Below are positions 8,312 through 17,588 of a DNA stretch of 39,290 bases, piece after piece (positions within the stretch are counted from its first letter, which is position 1; every line of letters starts with the position of its first letter). The stretch spans positions 1 through 39,290 of the forward strand of contig JAJEBZ010000303.1 in the NCBI GenBank assembly GCA_022822275.1, written 5' to 3'. The position numbers were made by a program, and so were the translations under genes. Below the pieces are notes generated by a model. That model saw only the letters and a program-made list of their open reading frames with translations. It did not search any database and was not told the origin of the DNA. This stretch comes from Candidatus Poribacteria bacterium (GTDB lineage: Bacteria; Poribacteria; WGA-4E; WGA-3G).

Positions 8312-9766
8312 ATGGCTAAAAAAAGAAAAACTACCAAAACAAAAACATCTATAGAAGAATGTACACTTCAGATGCAAACACACATCCATAGGATCGGTTT
8401 ATCTTCAGTTGAAGGCTACAAAAATTGGTGTAGACGACATAACTTTAGTCGTGGACTGGAGAAAAATTCACGCCAACTCCAAAAAGAACTTAGTTTTGCA
8501 TCCGCAATGATAGCATCTGAAATAATGGCGAATGAGAAGAAAATACGCAACCTGAAAGCGATGATCCCAAAAATCTATAACGGTGAACTAAACAGCGAAA
8601 AAGTAAGGAACAACACTGCAAGGGAAATCGCACACGCTTTTCAGAGAAGCAAATCTAAGAAAACACTACTGCAACTATTGTTACATATTGAGGATAACTC
8701 CGATCTCTTAGAGGAGGCTGTTTATGTCAAGGGAATCGAAGCAATAGCAAACAAATCTGATAATTGGATTCGCCCACTTCAGACATGGCGTGCTAAAAGT
8801 CATAATCGATCTCGGCAGTTCTCTGAACTCCTTCGCCACTTATTTGTGTCTTATGATATGCCAGAATTCATGCATCGTGTTTGGTTAACAGAAAACGAAG
8901 CACACCATAATTGGTATATTCATATCGGTGTCGGACAAAACATCCGAACTGCACCAGATATACCCGTCCAACTTACGAAAAAGATGGCGCATCATTTTCT
9001 CAATGCACCTAAACAATATAGCATTGATGAAGCAATCCGTTGGGGGCAAGTTCACGCTCTCAGCGGGGACAAGCGATTGGTAGATGCCCTCCGCGGCACA
9101 CAACTCATAGAAAATTATCCTAACGATGATTTCTGGTTGAACGTCATCCGTTTCTTCATCGCAAATCCAATGTTAGATGTCAATCATGTGCATCCTATCA
9201 TTGATTATATATGGAATCAGAAATTCCAAAACCAGCAGGTTTTTGTCGGAAGAGGCGTAATAGAAGAGATGGATCCTCCACAACCCAACTTTAGTATGAA
9301 GGGACGAACACCTGACACATTACTCCGTCAAGTTGACGAATGGCATCAAGAACTTGGCAGAGAAACACGAGGCGGGGATCTTCAGTGGTCACGATCAGAT
9401 ATCAGTGAATTCTGTCATCGCGAAGGCAGCAAGGAAAAACATAACTTAAAATACTGGTATATACGGGAACTTCTCAGCACAAAAGAACTCGTTACTGAAG
9501 GTAAAGCGATGAAACACTGTGTCAGATCGTACGCAAGGTCATGCTATGCCGGAAATACATCTATTTGGACATTAGAATCTGAAGAAGATGAAAACGGAAG
9601 AAACAAGGTGCTAACAATTGAAATCTCACGAACTGGAAACGTAATTCGTCAAGTGCGGGGGAAAAGGAATAGATTACCAACACAGAAAGAAAAATACCTG
9701 TTGGAACTTTGGGCAGCAAAGGAAAATCTGAAATTTGCCGGCTATCTCCGGTTTGAACAGGGTTGA
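8312..9766 (+). CDS. PcfJ-like protein
   Basis: A 484-aa soluble protein. The C-terminal segment from about residue 395 (EGKAMKHCVRSY, then a Cys-containing linker, then SIWTLESEEDENGRNKVLTIEI and a final charged helix) matches the PcfJ-like domain (PF14284). That domain was first named from conjugative-plasmid genes but occurs widely on chromosomes. Its biochemical function is not known. The N-terminal 390 residues are helical and basic, with no motif I recognise. ATG 8312 follows a strong GGAGGT site. It stands alone between the ABC importer and the restriction island and may mark the boundary of accessory DNA. Confidence 0.7.
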   Translation: MAKKRKTTKTKTSIEECTLQMQTHIHRIGLSSVEGYKNWCRRHNFSRGLEKNSRQLQKELSFASAMIASEIMANEKKIRNLKAMIPKIYNGELNSEKVRNNTAREIAHAFQRSKSKKTLLQLLLHIEDNSDLLEEAVYVKGIEAIANKSDNWIRPLQTWRAKSHNRSRQFSELLRHLFVSYDMPEFMHRVWLTENEAHHNWYIHIGVGQNIRTAPDIPVQLTKKMAHHFLNAPKQYSIDEAIRWGQVHALSGDKRLVDALRGTQLIENYPNDDFWLNVIRFFIANPMLDVNHVHPIIDYIWNQKFQNQQVFVGRGVIEEMDPPQPNFSMKGRTPDTLLRQVDEWHQELGRETRGGDLQWSRSDISEFCHREGSKEKHNLKYWYIRELLSTKELVTEGKAMKHCVRSYARSCYAGNTSIWTLESEEDENGRNKVLTIEISRTGNVIRQVRGKRNRLPTQKEKYLLELWAAKENLKFAGYLRFEQG

Positions 9767-9855
9767 TTCTGAATACAATTTATGGTAAATTATCTATCAG
9801 TATTTTGGTTTCATAGAATCCTCTATCACAATTAAACCGAAAAGGAGGCAACACC

Positions 9856-10086
9856 ATGGAAAATCTAACGACTGTTGAAGAAATTGTACAGCGATTAGAA
9901 AAACTTACTCCCTGGCAACAGAAACAGATTTTAAATTCCGTTCTATCTTTTTTAGGAGAACCAGTAAGAGGTACTCCGGGTAAGGAATTACTGAAATTTG
10001 TAGGTTTGTTTCCGCCGGAAGACATTGAACAAATAAAACAAGCGATTGAGGAAGATTGTGGGAAAATTGATAAATCAGAATGGTAG
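9856..10086 (+). CDS. Small antitoxin-like protein, partner of the PIN toxin (TA1)
   Basis: A 76-aa protein starting MENLTTVEEIVQRLEKL, probably two or three helices plus an acidic C-terminal tail ending SEW. It resembles DUF2281-type small proteins that pair with PIN-domain genes. The role as antitoxin is inferred from its size, its overlap with the PIN gene and the second, paralogous pair at 13862-14471. The two antitoxins have equal length and about 42 of 76 residues identical by hand alignment, including identical MENLTT starts and SEW ends. A strong AAAGGAGG site precedes ATG 9856. No classical DNA-binding fold is obvious to me. Confidence 0.7.
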   Translation: MENLTTVEEIVQRLEKLTPWQQKQILNSVLSFLGEPVRGTPGKELLKFVGLFPPEDIEQIKQAIEEDCGKIDKSEW

Positions 10087-10465
10087 GTTTCTATTAGACA
10101 CTAACATCGTGATTGGAATGTTTACCGGGAATAGAGCGATCCAAGAAAAAATGCAAAATAGTCAAAACGTATTCCTGGCTTCACCTGTGATTGGCGAACT
10201 CTACTATTGTGCACGGAAATCCGACAGAATTTTAGAGAATCTTCACAGAATCAACACATTTGTAGAAGAACACATTTTTCTTTCTTGTGATTTGGAAACG
10301 GCGAACTGGTACGGAACTATTAAAGAGAGACTACAACGCAAAGGAACTCCTATTCCAGACAACGATATTTGGATTGCAGCCATTGCGATGCAGCATGGAT
10401 TAATTCTTGTCACGCGTGACTCACATTTTGACGAAGTTGAATCTTTGCTGGTAGAACGTTGGTAA
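10067..10465 (+). CDS. PIN-domain toxin, VapC-like (TA1)
   Basis: A predicted Mg2+-dependent RNase toxin of about 132 aa. All four PIN acidic residues are visible: D in FLLDTN, E in IGELYY, D in PDNDIWIAA and D in VTRDSHF. The start is ambiguous. The frame is open from TTG 10046, but the conserved start by comparison with the second copy is near TTG 10067, which overlaps the antitoxin end by 20 bases, as is usual for TA pairs. The stop lies only 7 bases before mod, so toxin and methyltransferase are likely on one mRNA. The RNA target is unknown. Confidence 0.82.
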   Translation: MINQNGRFLLDTNIVIGMFTGNRAIQEKMQNSQNVFLASPVIGELYYCARKSDRILENLHRINTFVEEHIFLSCDLETANWYGTIKERLQRKGTPIPDNDIWIAAIAMQHGLILVTRDSHFDEVESLLVERW

Positions 10466-10472
10466 GTTAAAT

Positions 10473-13400
10473 ATGTCAGAAATCAATCCTACAACCGAAG
10501 CACTCAATACCCTCCGCGAAAAACTCCGTGAAATGTTCCAATTTTCACATACCGATCTGGACTTCGGAATCTTTCGTATACTCAAAATCAAACGTGAAGA
10601 AGTAAATGAGTTCATTGACGAAAAGTTGACTACCATAGTTGACAAAGCATTATCAGAAGCAGCAGATGCACTATACGAGAGTCAACTAACAGAAATCAAA
10701 GAATATGTCCATGAATATGGCAGTAGGAAACTTAGAGAATGCCTTGAGAATATTACTGAAGAATATCAGACGATTATAGAATTCCTGCAGGCTGAGGATA
10801 AGGAAGAACTTACTACACCCTTGAAAACCGATCCTGATGAACTCAAAGCACAACTCGCCTTTCGCGTCTATAACCACATTCACAATTTCTTTGAACGCTA
10901 TTACCGTGACGGAGACTTCGGCTACAACGACAGAAGCACCGCGCAATATAAGGTAAACTATCCAGACGAGACAGACTATAACGGATCAGATATACTTTTT
11001 CATTGGAAATGTCGGGACAGTTATTATGTGAAAACAGCAACAGGTTTCAATAGCGTCACTTTTGAAATTGAAGATAAACGCATTGAATATCGATTAGAAG
11101 GAAAGGCAAGCTCCGCTGTTGCACAAAACAGTAATCAAGACGATTTTAAACACTATCGTTTTGACAGAATTGAACCTCCTGAAGCTGATGACGTTGAGCC
11201 AACATGGCGCGTTATCCTCAACTTAGCAGAAACCTCAACACCAAAAGTTGAGATATACCGCGAAATGAACGCGCAAATTTTCGGTGAACAAGATGATGTA
11301 GACATCTATCTCCATGAACGCCCCAAGAAGGGTGAAGAACAGGGAAAACCGATCTTTAAGGACCTTGCAGATTCTTATGACAAGGTCCGAGATGGCAGAT
11401 TACAAGGCATTAAAGCATTACAGACTAACTTGACAAACTATGCGGGAAAGTTGGCAGACCGCCTTGATTTTAGGGATAAGGCACTGGGCAAAAACAAAAC
11501 AGAACGACAAACGACTCTTGAAAAACGTCCCAAAGTGCGCCGATTCCATACACTTGATAAAAACCTGAATACCTTCTTTGTCGGTATGGATTCCGACTAC
11601 TTTATCCACAAAGATTTGGACAAGTTCCTAAAAACCGAGCAACGCCGCTATATCCAGAACATTATCCTCGGTGATTTGGATACACTCCTGAACCTCAGTC
11701 CTGATAACCCGCATTTTGCTATTGCGACAGCGTTCCGCAACGTCACAGACGAGGTAATTGCACTCCTTGTTGCAGTGGAGACGTTCCAAAAGCAGCTTTT
11801 CCTAATGAAGAAAAAGGTTGTCTCTACCGACTATCTTATCTCTGTAGGTAAAATCACAGAAGCAACAAAAGATAGTCCTGAACTACGTGAAACGTTTTTC
11901 TCCCAAATTTTGGAAAACGAAGCACAACTTGATGACTGGCGCGACACCTTCGATATTGACATTCGGGAACAATTACCATTGCTTGACGGAGTCCATCCGA
12001 CATTACCACTTGACACGCGCTATTTTGACGAAACCTTTGTTGACAAACTCCTTTCACTATTTGATGATTTAGAATCGGAAATTGACGGTTTGCTACTGAA
12101 TAGTGAAAACTTTCAGGCGTTGAATCTGCTTCAGGAAAAATATCGAGGTAAACTCACAGGTGTGTATATCGATCCCCCTTACAACACTCAAGGTTCTCCA
12201 ATTCTGTATAAAAACGACTATAAAAATTCTTCTTGGTTATCGTTAATGTACGATCGACTTTTGTTATCAAAAGAGTTTTTGCAGAATGAAGGGATTATTT
12301 GTGTTGCTATTGATGATGTGGAGGTTTCGCCGTTACGATTCCTTTTAGCAGATCTTTTTGAGAAAGAGTTAGGGGTTGCTGCAGTACGTTCTAATCCGCA
12401 AGGACGAGCGAGAAAAGGTTATTTTTCACCAGCACACGAATATGCACTTTTTTATGGAAAACCGGGAGCATCACCTGGTAGTTTACCAAAGACAGAAAAG
12501 CAAAAAAACAGTTATCCACATCAAGACGCACAAGGACGTTTTACGTGGGATAATTTAATACGGCGACCTCCAGGCGATAACAGAGTAGATGTGCCAACTA
12601 TGTATTATCCGATTTACGTTAAACAAGATAACACTATCCGAATTCCAGAAATGACATGGAATGAATCAGAAAGGTCTTATGATGTTTTAGAAAAACCACG
12701 TGAGGATGAAGTGTCTGTCTGGCCTATTAAAGCAGGAGTGGAAAAAAGGTGGCGACATGGCTGGGAAAAAGTGTCAAGAGAAAGAGACGAATATCGAGTG
12801 CGACGCGTGGAAAACATTCGCGTAGAATATAAATCTCGTATGCAGCAAGAGGCTGTCCCAAAAACATGGTGGAGTGAGGGTACTTATGCCGCAGCCCGCT
12901 ATGGAACAACAGCATTGGAGGAAATTCTGGGCAATGGTAACTTCAACTTCCCAAAATCAGTTTTTCTTGTATCTGACTGTTTGCTGGCTTGCGGTTTGAA
13001 ATCTGATGGAATAGTATTGGATTTTTTCTCAGGTAGTGGCACAACAGGGCATGCTGTCCTCAAGCTTAACAAAGCTGATAAAGAAAAATACAAAGACAAA
13101 GGCAATCGCAAATTTATCCTTGTAGAAATGGGAGATTACTTTGAAAGCACCTTGAAAGAACGGATTCGTCGCGTCATGTTTTCTGAAAATTGGAAAGATG
13201 GTAAACCGGAGAAAAAAATTGACGGTACCGTCGGCATTGTCAAGTATCAACGTCTGGAACAGTACGAAGATGTCCTTAATAATCTCACCACTTTATCACC
13301 AAATGATGATACAGAACCTAAACTGCCGGTCAAATATCTTTATCGTCCTGATGAACAGGAAATTCGGTTGATGATGGATATGCGTTCCCCATTTTCTAAT

Positions 13401-13760
13401 CGTATTACTTATGGTAAAGATAGCACACAAGGCTTTGTAGACGTATTGGAAACCTACTGCTATTTAAAAGGACTTCCAATTGAGCGGCGGCTGCGGTTTG
13501 ATTTCGGTGAACAGCTCTACCGAGTTGTCCGTAGTGGTTCGCGAGTGGTCGTATTCCGCAACATCCTTGAAGATATGGACGATACGTCACATTTGTTAGA
13601 AATCCTTGCAGATGAAAGATTAGCAGGTGTTACACATTTAGATGTTAACCATGATGCTGATAAGAACGAGCTGCTTGCGGACTCGGATTTGCGGGAAATC
13701 CATTTTATCACAACATCGGATTTTGACTCAGGTCCAGTGTGGGACCCTGTTGAAAGTTAG
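10473..13760 (+). CDS. mod: Type III restriction-modification methyltransferase (Mod)
   Basis: Methylates adenine (N6) in the recognition site and supplies sequence specificity to the Mod-Res complex. It has beta-class order: catalytic motif IV DPPYN at about residues 567-571, then a 280-residue target-recognition region, then the SAM-binding motif DFFSGSGTTGHA at about residue 850. The 1095-aa protein is longer than common Type III Mod proteins (about 600-700). The extra length is mainly an N-terminal region of about 540 residues with no motif I recognise. The start ATG 10473 is 7 bases behind the PIN toxin stop. The restriction partner follows after a second TA pair. I see no simple-sequence tract suggesting phase variation. 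Confidence 0.9.
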   Translation: MSEINPTTEALNTLREKLREMFQFSHTDLDFGIFRILKIKREEVNEFIDEKLTTIVDKALSEAADALYESQLTEIKEYVHEYGSRKLRECLENITEEYQTIIEFLQAEDKEELTTPLKTDPDELKAQLAFRVYNHIHNFFERYYRDGDFGYNDRSTAQYKVNYPDETDYNGSDILFHWKCRDSYYVKTATGFNSVTFEIEDKRIEYRLEGKASSAVAQNSNQDDFKHYRFDRIEPPEADDVEPTWRVILNLAETSTPKVEIYREMNAQIFGEQDDVDIYLHERPKKGEEQGKPIFKDLADSYDKVRDGRLQGIKALQTNLTNYAGKLADRLDFRDKALGKNKTERQTTLEKRPKVRRFHTLDKNLNTFFVGMDSDYFIHKDLDKFLKTEQRRYIQNIILGDLDTLLNLSPDNPHFAIATAFRNVTDEVIALLVAVETFQKQLFLMKKKVVSTDYLISVGKITEATKDSPELRETFFSQILENEAQLDDWRDTFDIDIREQLPLLDGVHPTLPLDTRYFDETFVDKLLSLFDDLESEIDGLLLNSENFQALNLLQEKYRGKLTGVYIDPPYNTQGSPILYKNDYKNSSWLSLMYDRLLLSKEFLQNEGIICVAIDDVEVSPLRFLLADLFEKELGVAAVRSNPQGRARKGYFSPAHEYALFYGKPGASPGSLPKTEKQKNSYPHQDAQGRFTWDNLIRRPPGDNRVDVPTMYYPIYVKQDNTIRIPEMTWNESERSYDVLEKPREDEVSVWPIKAGVEKRWRHGWEKVSRERDEYRVRRVENIRVEYKSRMQQEAVPKTWWSEGTYAAARYGTTALEEILGNGNFNFPKSVFLVSDCLLACGLKSDGIVLDFFSGSGTTGHAVLKLNKADKEKYKDKGNRKFILVEMGDYFESTLKERIRRVMFSENWKDGKPEKKIDGTVGIVKYQRLEQYEDVLNNLTTLSPNDDTEPKLPVKYLYRPDEQEIRLMMDMRSPFSNRITYGKDSTQGFVDVLETYCYLKGLPIERRLRFDFGEQLYRVVRSGSRVVVFRNILEDMDDTSHLLEILADERLAGVTHLDVNHDADKNELLADSDLREIHFITTSDFDSGPVWDPVES

Positions 13761-13770
13761 TAATAAAACA

Positions 13771-13800
13771 TTGATTTTTGATACAGTATCATGATAAACT
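13771..13800 (+). promoter_or_regulatory. Promoter with palindromic operator before TA2-res
   Basis: TTGATT (13771-13776) and TAAACT (13795-13800) are separated by 18 bases. Within the spacer lies a perfect inverted repeat TGATAC-A-GTATCA at 13779-13791, placed where a repressor would block polymerase. Autoregulation by the TA2 proteins is an inference from position. Confidence 0.5.
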
Positions 13801-13861
13801 TGGGGCAAGAAGTTCGTTAGATGCAAACCCTGCCGTAGTAAAACGAAAAGGAGATAACACA

Positions 13862-14092
13862 ATGGAAAATTTGACAACTATCCAAGAGATTTCCCAACGA
13901 CTCAAAGTCCTTCCACTGGAGCAACAAAGGCAAGTGTTGGATTTCATATTAGAGTTATCAGGTGAACCGCCAAAGCAATACCCCGGCAAAAATCTTCTTC
14001 AATTTGTAGGCACAATTTCAAAAGAGGATTTGGAAATTATGAAGCAGACGATTGAAGAAGGATGCGGGCAGGTTGATGAATCAGAGTGGTAG
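13862..14092 (+). CDS. Small antitoxin-like protein, partner of the second PIN toxin (TA2)
   Basis: A 76-aa paralogue of the product at 9856-10086, with the same length, the same MENLTT start and the same SEW end. Differences concentrate in the middle (residues 30-60), where partner specificity could lie. The open frame extends upstream to 13778, but ATG 13862 has AAAGGAG 8 bases ahead and matches the start of the first copy. It overlaps the toxin gene. The role as antitoxin is inferred from pairing with a PIN toxin. Its promoter and a palindromic operator lie at 13771-13800. Confidence 0.7.
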   Translation: MENLTTIQEISQRLKVLPLEQQRQVLDFILELSGEPPKQYPGKNLLQFVGTISKEDLEIMKQTIEEGCGQVDESEW

Positions 14093-14471
14093 ATATCTGC
14101 TTGATACGAATGTCGTTATTGCATTATTTTCTGGTGATAGAGCAGTGGAAGCGAAAGTAGCGAACACAGAGAACGTTGCGCTTGCACCACCGATGATTGG
14201 TGAACTTTACTTTGGGGCGCAGAAATCTGAAAAAGTCACGGAGAATCTTCACAGAATCGATATGTTCATAGAAGAACATTTGCTATTTTCTTGTGACTTG
14301 GAAACTGCCCGGTGGTTTGGAATCATAAAAAATCAGTTACGACGTAAAGGAACTCCTATCCCAGACAACGATATCTGGATTGCAGCGATTGCGATACAAC
14401 ATGAGTTAATCCTCGTTACACGAGACGCACATTTTGAGGCAGTGGAATCCTTGCAGACAGAACGTTGGTAA
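14076..14471 (+). CDS. PIN-domain toxin, VapC-like (TA2)
   Basis: A second predicted PIN RNase (131 aa). The acidic residues are conserved (D in YLLDTN, E in IGELYF, D in PDNDIWIAA, D in VTRDAHF). The 17-residue block RKGTPIPDNDIWIAAIA is identical in the first toxin, as is SCDLETA. ATG 14076 overlaps the antitoxin end by 17 bases. TTG starts slightly upstream (14073, 14052) are also possible. The stop is 35 bases before the restriction subunit gene. The strong resemblance to the first pair shows that one pair arose by duplication of the other or both from a recent common source. Confidence 0.82.
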   Translation: MNQSGRYLLDTNVVIALFSGDRAVEAKVANTENVALAPPMIGELYFGAQKSEKVTENLHRIDMFIEEHLLFSCDLETARWFGIIKNQLRRKGTPIPDNDIWIAAIAIQHELILVTRDAHFEAVESLQTERW

Positions 14472-14506
14472 ACGATTGTATAACTATTTCTTCCAATTGA
14501 AACCTT

Positions 14507-17500
14507 ATGCCACTATATCAAGAATACGAAGCCAAAATCTTAACCGAAAACGGAATTGACATCCGAAATGATGGAACAAAAGAGATTATTCGGATGTACG
14601 ACCCAAATCAGGAATTGCAGCTACCTTTTGAAACTTTGGAAAGGCTTCAGTCTTTTCTTGACGAGTACAATTATCTCACAAAAAATAGTTTTAAACTCCG
14701 TTACTACCAAGTCTTAGCACTGCTTTTCACTGAGCAATTCTTTGCCGACCACAAACAACTTGCAAAACAGACACTGAACAGCGAACAAGAAAATCAGCGA
14801 ATGTTGGCGTATTGGATGGCGACAGGAAGTGGAAAAACCCTTGTCATGCATCTTAACATTCTCCAATATTTGCATCATTTCTGTAAAAAAGAGGGGGCGC
14901 GACTTCAAATTTACCTAACAACCCCTTTGGCAAATCTGATTAAGCAGCATGAACGCGAATTGGAACCCTACGTGCGTCAACTCAACGAAACCTATAACAA
15001 TCGGATTGAACTTGTAATTGACACCACGCAGGGACTTTTGCAGAAAGATGAGGATTATTTCCGATTGCCAGATGACGGAGAAATTCGCCGCCTCATTTTA
15101 GTAGACGAAGCGCATATTGGTTTGACAACTGGAGAAGCAGGAAAATTTAGAGAACTTCGGAACCGTCTCAATGTTGGTAACTCCTTCCTATTTGAGTATT
15201 CTGCTACCTTTCACAACGTTGCCAAAGAACTGAAGGATGAATACGAAAAGGCTATTATCTACCGTTATGATTATGCCCGATTTTACAGCGATGGATACGG
15301 CAAAGATCATTTTTTCAAGCCAATAGCAGCAGATACGGTTACTGACGAATCCGAAGAAGAAATTAAAGACAATTTGGATGAATGTCTCAGGGTGATGGAG
15401 GAAAAGTTGCAGACATTCAGCAGAGTCCAAAACAATGAACAGTACGACAATGACCTAACTGCACATCGTCCTTTGATGGCGTTTATGGGACACACAGTCG
15501 ACAATCCGACAGAGGAGGGCGAAAAGGACGAAGTTTCTGACATACAGAAAGTGCTTGATTACTTTGCGGCACTGAGTGATGAAGAACGGCAAAATTTCAG
15601 ACACATTTTTGGTAATCACATTATCGGTCCCCTTGTTGTCGCTCGCAATCCTGAAAACAATAGCGAACTACTCCTCTCTTATGGCGATGGTGAAAAATGG
15701 GGAATGATTAACGTTGGCGATGCAGCAAGTTTTTACAACAGCATTGCCAATAGCCGCATTGAAACGCGTGATGAACCCTTCGGCGATCCAAAACTACAAT
15801 TTGAAAATCTTGATAACGAAACAAGTCCAATAAATGTCCTGATTGGGAGTCGTAAGTTTGCGGAAGGGTGGAACTCTTATCGTCTCTCTGTAATTGATCT
15901 GATTAATTTGGGAAGTTCCAAGGGCAACCTGATTATACAAATTTTTGGTCGTGGCGTGCGGTTACGCGGGTTAGGCGGAGATGGGAAACGTCGGCATCCT
16001 GAACACAACCCCGATTACTATCTCTTAAGAAAAAATGACAAAAAAGACAATATTCGACGGTTAGAAACGTTAACTGTTTTCAGTTTGCGGCGAAGTTATC
16101 TTGAACATTTCCTTAAAGAGGTGCACGCGGGCGGTATTTCACTTCTGCATACTTTTCCGATTGAGGTAAACCCAACGCTTTTTAAAGTAGATAGCAACAC
16201 GTCAATTAACTTTGAAGAGTATAGTCAAAAATTACGTATCTTTAAGCAGGATGATACATTGGGCAGTGGCATCAAACGGGTTTTTCTCAACGGACAAAAA
16301 ATCCACTACACCTATCTTGATAATGGGGTTAAAGAATCTGGAACTATCAGGAACTGGCGGAAGTTGGCGTTAGATTACAGAACGGATAAGGAAAGAAATG
16401 ACCCCGATGTATTTGAGGACCTACGGCAAAATAATGAAAAGTATTTTTGCTATCTGAATAGGGCAAAACTTGCTACCGTTATTCACCGTGAGGCAGAGAA
16501 AAACCATCTGCAACTTTATAACAAAGAAAATCGTAAACCTACTATCATTGATTTCCTATCACTCGTTGGGGAAATTCGTTATCGGGAGCAGGGACAAGAT
16601 CCAATTGCGTGGACAGATCAACTCAATCGCCAAATTGTAATTGATGTCACCCGTAAACTGCGGAACCGTATCAATGCTCACATCAATCGCACGAACTATG
16701 TCTATAAACCGTTAAATCGAGATGATTTTATCTACGAGTACACGGTGACAAAAGAATTTGAGGACCGAGATGAAATGGACACTTTTTTAAAGGAAATTGA
16801 AACCTCAGAATTAAATCCTCTTGTGGAAAACCCACACTCACATATCAAAAGCAAATTGCAATTGTCACTATTCCGAGGACATCGACACATTTACGAACCG
16901 CTGGTACTTCATCAAGACGATGTGGAGAATGCGTATCGTAATGTGAAAGTTTCACCAGACAGGTTGAACGCAGGCGAAAAGAAATTTGTTGAAGACCTGA
17001 CAGAATATATCAAGTTAAATTATCTAAAGAATAAAAGGTACGAATTCTATCTGATGCGGAATGTGCAGAAGATCGGCATCTATTTGGAAAGCGATGCAGG
17101 AAGTTATTATCCCGATTTTGTGCTATGGGTACTTGATAAGGAACAAGAGATAACACACATTCTTTTCGTTGATCCGAAGGGACAACGCGGTATCATTGAC
17201 GATACGACTCTTAGTTATAAGGACCATCCGAAGGTAAAACTTGCCCGAAAATCCGAGGACCAAACGCTTATCACACTTGAAAAGAAATTAGAATCTGAAC
17301 AAGTTGGAACGTTTTCTCTCAATTCATTCCTACTGCTAAGGGATAGTTCCAAGTTAGGAGATGGGGAAACTGACGTTAAATGGATTGAAGCAAATATGTT
17401 GGCTTACAACATACTCCGCTTGGATTGGCATGAAAAAAAGGAGGACGGTTCCACAAGCAGACTTTTCAATGATGAGAAATCTTACTTAGATTTGATGTTT

Positions 17501-17524
17501 GAAAAGGTGGGAATTCGGCAGTAA
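14507..17524 (+). CDS. res: Type III restriction enzyme, Res (helicase-nuclease) subunit
   Basis: An ATP-dependent translocase and endonuclease that cleaves unmethylated DNA together with Mod. The 1005-aa protein has superfamily-2 helicase motifs in order: Walker A ATGSGKT (about 105-111), DEAH (200-203) in LVDEAH, and motif VI QIFGRGVRLRG (from 478). The C-terminal nuclease shows a PD-(D/E)XK pattern: YYPDF with PD near 869-870, then FVDPKG with D889 and K891. Length and domain order are as expected for Type III Res. ATG 14507 has no strong Shine-Dalgarno site, so translation may be coupled to the TA2 genes upstream. A bidirectional terminator follows. Confidence 0.92.
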   Translation: MPLYQEYEAKILTENGIDIRNDGTKEIIRMYDPNQELQLPFETLERLQSFLDEYNYLTKNSFKLRYYQVLALLFTEQFFADHKQLAKQTLNSEQENQRMLAYWMATGSGKTLVMHLNILQYLHHFCKKEGARLQIYLTTPLANLIKQHERELEPYVRQLNETYNNRIELVIDTTQGLLQKDEDYFRLPDDGEIRRLILVDEAHIGLTTGEAGKFRELRNRLNVGNSFLFEYSATFHNVAKELKDEYEKAIIYRYDYARFYSDGYGKDHFFKPIAADTVTDESEEEIKDNLDECLRVMEEKLQTFSRVQNNEQYDNDLTAHRPLMAFMGHTVDNPTEEGEKDEVSDIQKVLDYFAALSDEERQNFRHIFGNHIIGPLVVARNPENNSELLLSYGDGEKWGMINVGDAASFYNSIANSRIETRDEPFGDPKLQFENLDNETSPINVLIGSRKFAEGWNSYRLSVIDLINLGSSKGNLIIQIFGRGVRLRGLGGDGKRRHPEHNPDYYLLRKNDKKDNIRRLETLTVFSLRRSYLEHFLKEVHAGGISLLHTFPIEVNPTLFKVDSNTSINFEEYSQKLRIFKQDDTLGSGIKRVFLNGQKIHYTYLDNGVKESGTIRNWRKLALDYRTDKERNDPDVFEDLRQNNEKYFCYLNRAKLATVIHREAEKNHLQLYNKENRKPTIIDFLSLVGEIRYREQGQDPIAWTDQLNRQIVIDVTRKLRNRINAHINRTNYVYKPLNRDDFIYEYTVTKEFEDRDEMDTFLKEIETSELNPLVENPHSHIKSKLQLSLFRGHRHIYEPLVLHQDDVENAYRNVKVSPDRLNAGEKKFVEDLTEYIKLNYLKNKRYEFYLMRNVQKIGIYLESDAGSYYPDFVLWVLDKEQEITHILFVDPKGQRGIIDDTTLSYKDHPKVKLARKSEDQTLITLEKKLESEQVGTFSLNSFLLLRDSSKLGDGETDVKWIEANMLAYNILRLDWHEKKEDGSTSRLFNDEKSYLDLMFEKVGIRQ

Positions 17525-17531
17525 GACAAAA

Positions 17532-17563
17532 AAATAGACGGGTTTGGATGAACCCGCCTATTT
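17532..17563. terminator. Bidirectional terminator between res and the TRAP binding protein
   Basis: AAATAGacgggtt at 17532-17544 pairs with aacccgcCTATTT at 17551-17563: a 6-bp inner stem (CGGGTT), one mismatch and a 6-bp outer stem, with a 6-nt loop. A-rich sequence on the left and T-rich sequence on the right allow it to stop both convergent transcripts. Confidence 0.7.
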
Positions 17564-17588
17564 CATAACAGAAACACAGATTTCAAAA

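What the first reader, a model, noticed from the sequence alone, without database searches (positions are those of the whole stretch)
9856..17524. Restriction-modification island with a paralogous toxin-antitoxin pair before each R-M gene
The order is antitoxin-PIN toxin-mod-antitoxin-PIN toxin-res, all on one strand with gaps of 7 and 35 bases between toxin and R-M gene. The two TA pairs have equal layout, the same overlap and identical blocks such as RKGTPIPDNDIWIAAIA. A TA pair linked to each component could punish loss of either gene or act as a second defence layer when restriction fails. I do not know of a described system with this interleaving.
Basis: partly seen in the sequence, partly recalled or inferred. 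Interest (0 to 1): 0.68.

Follow-up and report, generated by a model that had tools for sequence, protein, structure and literature searches.

The report
Restriction system interleaved with toxin-antitoxin pairs
In a sponge-dwelling bacterium, the two genes of a DNA-cutting immune system each sit directly behind a toxin-antitoxin gene pair; relatives show that the pairs live at the same chromosomal spot with or without the immune system, and that scars of a pair or its antitoxin remain in front of the modification gene in many of them.

Summary
In a Candidatus Poribacteria MAG the order A1-T1-mod-A2-T2-res is real, on one strand, with gaps of 7 and 35 nt. mod and res are an intact Type III R-M system. 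T1/T2 are VapC-type PIN toxins with intact catalytic residues, and A1/A2 are an antitoxin family that no curated model covers. The interleaving is not a recent tandem duplication: T1 and T2 lie in different clades. It is also not a fixed system. In 85 Poribacteria genomes the same A(-A)-T module sits mostly at two fixed chromosomal sites, usually next to the PcfJ-like gene also present here, often with no R-M. In R-M-bearing relatives, TA units lie before mod, before res or after res. Mod is preceded by an intact antitoxin, or by an antitoxin or toxin 3'-end scar, in 11 of 18 loci, in some with the antitoxin promoter kept. My reading: a resident TA locus became the docking site of this R-M family, and TA units lend it their promoters. 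The pairs are autonomous modules, not obligate parts of the R-M system; toxins are lost while antitoxin and R-M stay. Functional coupling (addiction or second-layer defence) is possible but unshown. New variant of a known kind.

The parts
8312..9766 (+). ORF0, PcfJ-like protein (484 aa); recurrent left neighbour of the TA module with or without R-M
   Evidence: Pfam PcfJ 2.7e-13; same position in relatives at both chromosomal sites
9763..9791 (+). promoter-like element of A1 (TTGATT-17-TAAATT), shared with TA-only sites of relatives
   Evidence: aligned left edges; below the cut-off of the generic promoter scan
9842..9848 (+). Shine-Dalgarno AAGGAGG of A1
   Evidence: sequence; the same motif precedes the other antitoxins
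9856..10086 (+). A1, antitoxin (76 aa, mostly helical in a low-confidence model, unclassified family)
10067..10465 (+). T1, VapC-type PIN toxin; start most likely TTG (ATG changed to ATA at 10070)
10473..13760 (+). mod, Type III DNA methyltransferase (DPPY and FxGxG motifs)
   Evidence: Pfam N6_N4_Mtase 1.1e-22; PADLOC MTase_III 6.3e-108
13771..13800 (+). promoter-like element of A2 (TTGATT-18-TAAACT) between mod and A2
13862..14092 (+). A2, second antitoxin
14076..14471 (+). T2, second VapC-type PIN toxin (ATG start)
14507..17524 (+). res, Type III restriction subunit (TGSGKT, DEAH, PD..DPKG motifs)
   Evidence: Pfam ResIII 4.7e-11; PADLOC REase_III 2.4e-52
17531..17564 (.). terminator-like hairpin between res and the convergent TRAP gene

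Best explanation
A VapBC-like TA module (antitoxin gene overlapping the VapC gene, often with extra solitary antitoxins in tandem) is a long-term resident of two chromosomal sites in Poribacteria, usually next to a PcfJ-like gene. One Type III R-M family docked at these sites and became interleaved with TA units. A unit in front of mod is old, since its scars survive in two genera; a second unit between mod and res is seen in the window's genus and once in another. Each TA unit brings a promoter and strong ribosome-binding site, and mod and res follow the toxins at 7 and 35 nt without a terminator, so most likely they are read from the TA promoters as two TA-R-M operons. The toxins are probably active tRNA-cleaving VapCs held by their antitoxins. 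They help keep the site and possibly arrest growth in stress or infection, but they are autonomous and dispensable to the R-M system. Shown: anatomy, site sharing, scars, purifying selection. Inferred: transcription from TA promoters, toxicity, stabilisation.
For: TA at the same two sites without R-M: ABCperm-ORF0-A-T-TRAP in G045, G044, G039, G040, and ORF0-(A)-A-T-E2 in many others. With R-M: window, G046, G035, G038, G036 at the TRAP site; G063, G069, G056, G077, G071, G049, G076 at the E2 site. Antitoxin 3'-end scars 13-15 nt before mod in G071, G069, G063 (weak), G047, G051, G053, G076; toxin 3'-end scar in G038; antitoxin intact and toxin gone or gutted in G046, G035. Antitoxin-type promoter kept before mod after loss of the antitoxin ORF in G071, G069, G063, G076. 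Res 3'-end remnants beside TA in G083 and G061. T1 and T2 in different clades. dN/dS 0.10-0.15 for toxins, mod and res. All 44 close T genes have an A directly upstream, while A outnumbers T.
Against: No transcript data; the generic promoter scan does not call the TA promoters (8 of 12 matches or fewer, below its cut-off) and finds about as many promoter-like sites as shuffles. Order of events (TA first or R-M first) is not rooted by a species tree. Seven of 18 mod loci show no TA trace upstream, so ancestry of that linkage is inferred. MAG contigs are short and several loci are cut.
Confidence: 0.6

Rival explanations
1. Pure co-residence in a defence hotspot: TA and R-M both accumulate at the PcfJ-like site, and their order has no functional meaning.
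For: TA without R-M at the same sites and R-M without TA genes elsewhere; mod-res gaps also hold other cargo (ATPase pair in G035, p150/p380 cassette, Rpn-like proteins in G029); pairs shuffle among positions.
Against: TA units abut mod and res at short distances in the same orientation; antitoxin promoter is kept before mod after the antitoxin ORF is lost; no occurrence of this TA family at the 17 more distant Type III loci of the phylum fetched.
Confidence: 0.27
2. One reading: each TA pair guards its R-M gene, killing or arresting the cell when mod or res is lost or when restriction fails (PrrC-like second layer).
For: One intact pair directly before each R-M gene here; a second double case in G046; the concept is established for other toxins (PMC3506569, PMC3710099).
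Against: R-M persists where the left toxin is gone (G046, G035, G038) or where no TA gene remains (G047, G053); TA persists without R-M in many genomes; the G046 pre-res toxin carries a stop codon.
Confidence: 0.1
3. TA units act mainly as homologous recombination handles that let R-M modules enter, leave and shuffle.
For: Dispersed copies of one family around mod and res, mixed clades at each position, res remnants.
Against: The two copies here share no exact match longer than 18 nt, short for RecA-type recombination; no chimeric junction was demonstrated.
Confidence: 0.08

Closest known systems
tRNA(fMet)-specific VapBC (VapC of enterobacteria, PDB 3tnd, 6nkl, 5ecd)
   Same: PIN toxin with the four acidic residues; antitoxin gene upstream and overlapping; best match of T by sequence profile among solved structures, 8.5e-19
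   Different: scores far below the equivalog cut-offs (80.9 vs 140 bits); antitoxin is not a recognised VapB and looks all-helical
pneumococcal tvr locus (Type I R-M with phd-doc-like tvrAT between hsdM and hsdR, PMC6265443)
   Same: a TA-like pair embedded between modification and restriction genes
   Different: Type I, with recombinase tvrR and hsdS shuffling; one pair only; TvrT regulates the recombinase and no clear addiction was found there
PrrC-PrrI and HEPN toxins in R-M operons (PMC3506569, PMC3710099)
   Same: RNase toxin coupled to R-M genes as a possible second layer
   Different: there the R-M proteins are thought to act as the antitoxin; [quoted passage not shown]
A-VapC pair on Allocoleopsis plasmid pMIC7113.04 (NC_019761.1)
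   Same: same antitoxin family (38% to A2) and VapC (53% to T2), same overlap layout
   Different: plasmid pair beside a ParA gene; no Type III R-M, though an Mrr-like nuclease gene lies about 460 nt downstream

Membership tests
Type III R-M system | adjacent mod with N6/N4 methylase motifs and res with SF2 helicase plus PD-(D/E)xK nuclease | tested here: met
   HMM matches and invariant DPPY, FxGxG, TGSGKT, DEAH, PD..DPKG columns across relatives
Type III R-M system | methylation-sensitive, ATP-dependent cleavage at a defined site | not testable with these tools
   needs methylome and restriction assay
VapBC type II toxin-antitoxin | PIN toxin with conserved acidic active site | tested here: met
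   DTN, GEL, NDIW, TRD invariant across 10 members including T1 and T2
VapBC type II toxin-antitoxin | toxin always accompanied by an upstream antitoxin gene | tested here: met
   44 of 44 close T genes have A directly upstream
VapBC type II toxin-antitoxin | antitoxin of a known VapB class (RHH, AbrB, Phd/YefM, HTH) | tested here: not met
   no curated family over cut-off; weak VAPB_antitox (0.014) and DUF2281 (0.0028) touches; low-confidence all-helical model
VapBC type II toxin-antitoxin | toxicity and neutralisation | not testable with these tools
   needs expression assay
tvr-type phase-variable R-M with TA | tyrosine recombinase and shuffling specificity genes in the locus | tested here: not met
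   no such gene among the ORFs of 9856-17524
   positions and presence vary; only the window and, in part, G046 have both

The most novel reading that the evidence does not exclude
The two TA-R-M operons form a guard circuit: antitoxin-toxin complexes repress their own promoters and thereby mod and res, so that phage-induced antitoxin decay both raises R-M expression and frees a tRNA-cleaving toxin, giving restriction and growth arrest from one switch at each R-M gene.
Probability: 0.12. Interest if true: 0.8.

Novelty: new variant of a known kind. Interest (0 to 1): 0.47.

Why it matters
It is a natural series (TA only, TA plus R-M, R-M with TA scars) in one phylum that makes the old proposal of immunity-suicide coupling testable. 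It is also a counter-example to the statement that immunity loci lack dedicated antitoxins (PMC3506569), and it suggests that TA promoters can be captured to express restriction genes.

Tried and rejected
Recent tandem duplication of the pair: rejected by tree and dS. Scattered ordinary TA modules landing by chance: rejected as the main account because most copies sit at two fixed sites, though about 15 copies lie elsewhere. Systematic R-M remnants at empty sites: only two sites (G083, G061) have res remnants, so most empty sites give no proof of former R-M. Viral contigs: no relative of T2. Plasmids: only distant VapC and res relatives. Solved structures for the antitoxin: nothing significant.

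Full report
Observation. The window lies in a Candidatus Poribacteria assembly (G000:C94; 4.53 Mb, 320 contigs; the phylum is inferred from the named relatives). The six ORFs are as described: A1 9856-10086, T1 to 10465, mod 10473-13760, A2 13862-14092, T2 to 14471, res 14507-17524, all on the + strand. mod and res match Type III families (Pfam and PADLOC) and keep their catalytic motifs across relatives. T1 and T2 match PIN/VapC; their closest solved relatives by sequence profile are tRNA(fMet)-specific VapC toxins. A1 and A2 belong to a 76-residue family that no curated model covers above cut-off and that has no significant solved relative. A low-confidence model (pLDDT 67) is all-helical. 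T2 has an ATG (14076) where T1 has ATA (10070), so T1 probably starts at TTG 10067.

Not a recent duplication. A1/A2 are 55% and T1/T2 65% identical; third codon positions are near saturation and dN/dS of T1-T2 is 0.15. In a toxin tree T1 groups with a copy at an unrelated site in G034 (99/95), and T2 groups (100/98) with pairs from sites without R-M (G044, G039, G040) and others. The shared block RKGTPIPDNDIWIAAIA is conserved in the whole family. Both toxin lineages are under purifying selection.

Where the pairs live. The antitoxin family occurs in 48 of 85 Poribacteria genomes. The close toxin family (E <= 1e-40) has 44 places and every one has an antitoxin directly upstream, while antitoxins are more numerous and often solitary. 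Most copies lie at two chromosomal sites, usually right after the PcfJ-like ORF0: ABC permease-ORF0-[TA]-TRAP (the window's site) and ORF0-[A-A-T array]-lipoyl acyltransferase E2. At the first site four genomes carry only ORF0-A-T and no R-M (G045, G044, G039, G040); at the second site TA-only is the commoner state. About 15 further copies are elsewhere. The window's own genome has only the two copies described.

R-M relatives. This mod/res family (mostly 64-81% identical) occurs in about 19 genomes of one taxonomic family. Thirteen have antitoxins or pairs inside or directly beside the R-M genes: before mod (window, G046, G035, fragment in G076), between mod and res (window, G046, G038, G036, G049), after res (G063, G069, G056, G077, G071, G076, G044). 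Both positions together are seen in the window and, with the left toxin missing, in G046. The pre-res toxin of G046 carries a stop codon.

Scars. Immediately before mod, where no antitoxin gene remains, the last antitoxin codons with their stop are still readable about 13-15 nt before the mod start in G071 (..EDCRQFDESGW*), G069, G047 and G051 (..EEGCEQVYKSER*), G053, G076, and weakly G063; G038 keeps the toxin's last codons; G035 keeps the antitoxin and a gutted toxin. In all, 11 of 18 mod loci carry an intact or scarred TA unit at that place. The background used for scoring contained true antitoxin genes, so its probabilities are conservative. In G071, G069, G063 and G076 the antitoxin-type promoter (TTGATT..TAAACT or a near copy) still stands before mod, which is the best sign that mod is read from it. 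Two TA-only sites keep a res 3' end (G083, G061), so R-M has also been lost.

How it probably works. Shown: order, orientation, short gaps, no terminator-like site in the T1-mod and T2-res gaps, intact active sites, selection on toxins and R-M genes. Inferred: mod and res are expressed from the TA promoters; the pairs are ordinary autonomous TA modules that stabilise the site and may arrest growth under stress. The guard idea is not excluded but is not needed, because toxins are repeatedly lost while R-M and antitoxin remain, and TA modules persist without R-M.

Comparison with the literature. Coupling of suicide genes with R-M was proposed by Makarova and colleagues (PMC3506569) and extended to HEPN toxins (PMC3710099); [quoted passage not shown] A TA-like pair embedded in a Type I R-M locus is known in pneumococcus (PMC6265443). 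Sponge symbionts, with Poribacteria among the bins studied, are enriched in both R-M and TA genes (PMC5649159). My searches of the held library found no description of VapBC-like pairs interleaved with Type III mod and res; most subscription papers are missing from that library.

Verdict. Real, conserved in part, variable in form: a new variant of TA-R-M association, most economically explained by R-M docking in a resident TA locus and capture of TA promoters.

Noticed in passing
L056:12567-13019, L059:13106-14707, L063:6397-6843, L062:1286-1771, L068:2769-4517: The mod-res gap of at least eight relatives holds a 150-residue protein of unknown family, in some followed by a 380-residue protein with an HEFGH zinc-peptidase-like motif; neither has a Pfam match over its cut-off. 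Possible second accessory cassette of this R-M family.
   Followed up: partly
window 12459-12941 (mod residues about 663-823) versus relatives: The middle of mod (target recognition region) is replaced in most relatives while both ends stay about 70-80% identical; only G046 and G076 align over the whole length with the window's version. Suggests exchange of specificity.
   Followed up: no
L058:9303-11982: In G035 the mod-res gap holds an AAA_15/AbiEii-like ATPase and a 336-residue partner, resembling a two-gene defence cassette.
   Followed up: no
L054:9589-9813, L063:3030-3257, L066:4511-4729, L050:5894-6118, L141: Solitary antitoxins in tandem arrays share a replaced C-terminal tail (..CGMASLSQ..) and their own promoter, as if one toxin-less antitoxin unit had spread.
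   Followed up: partly
window 8312-9766: The PcfJ-like gene accompanies the TA module at two unrelated chromosomal sites; its role is unknown.
   Followed up: partly
L179 (NC_019761.1 4627-11010): A cyanobacterial plasmid carries the same antitoxin-VapC pair with an Mrr-like nuclease gene about 460 nt downstream.
   Followed up: no
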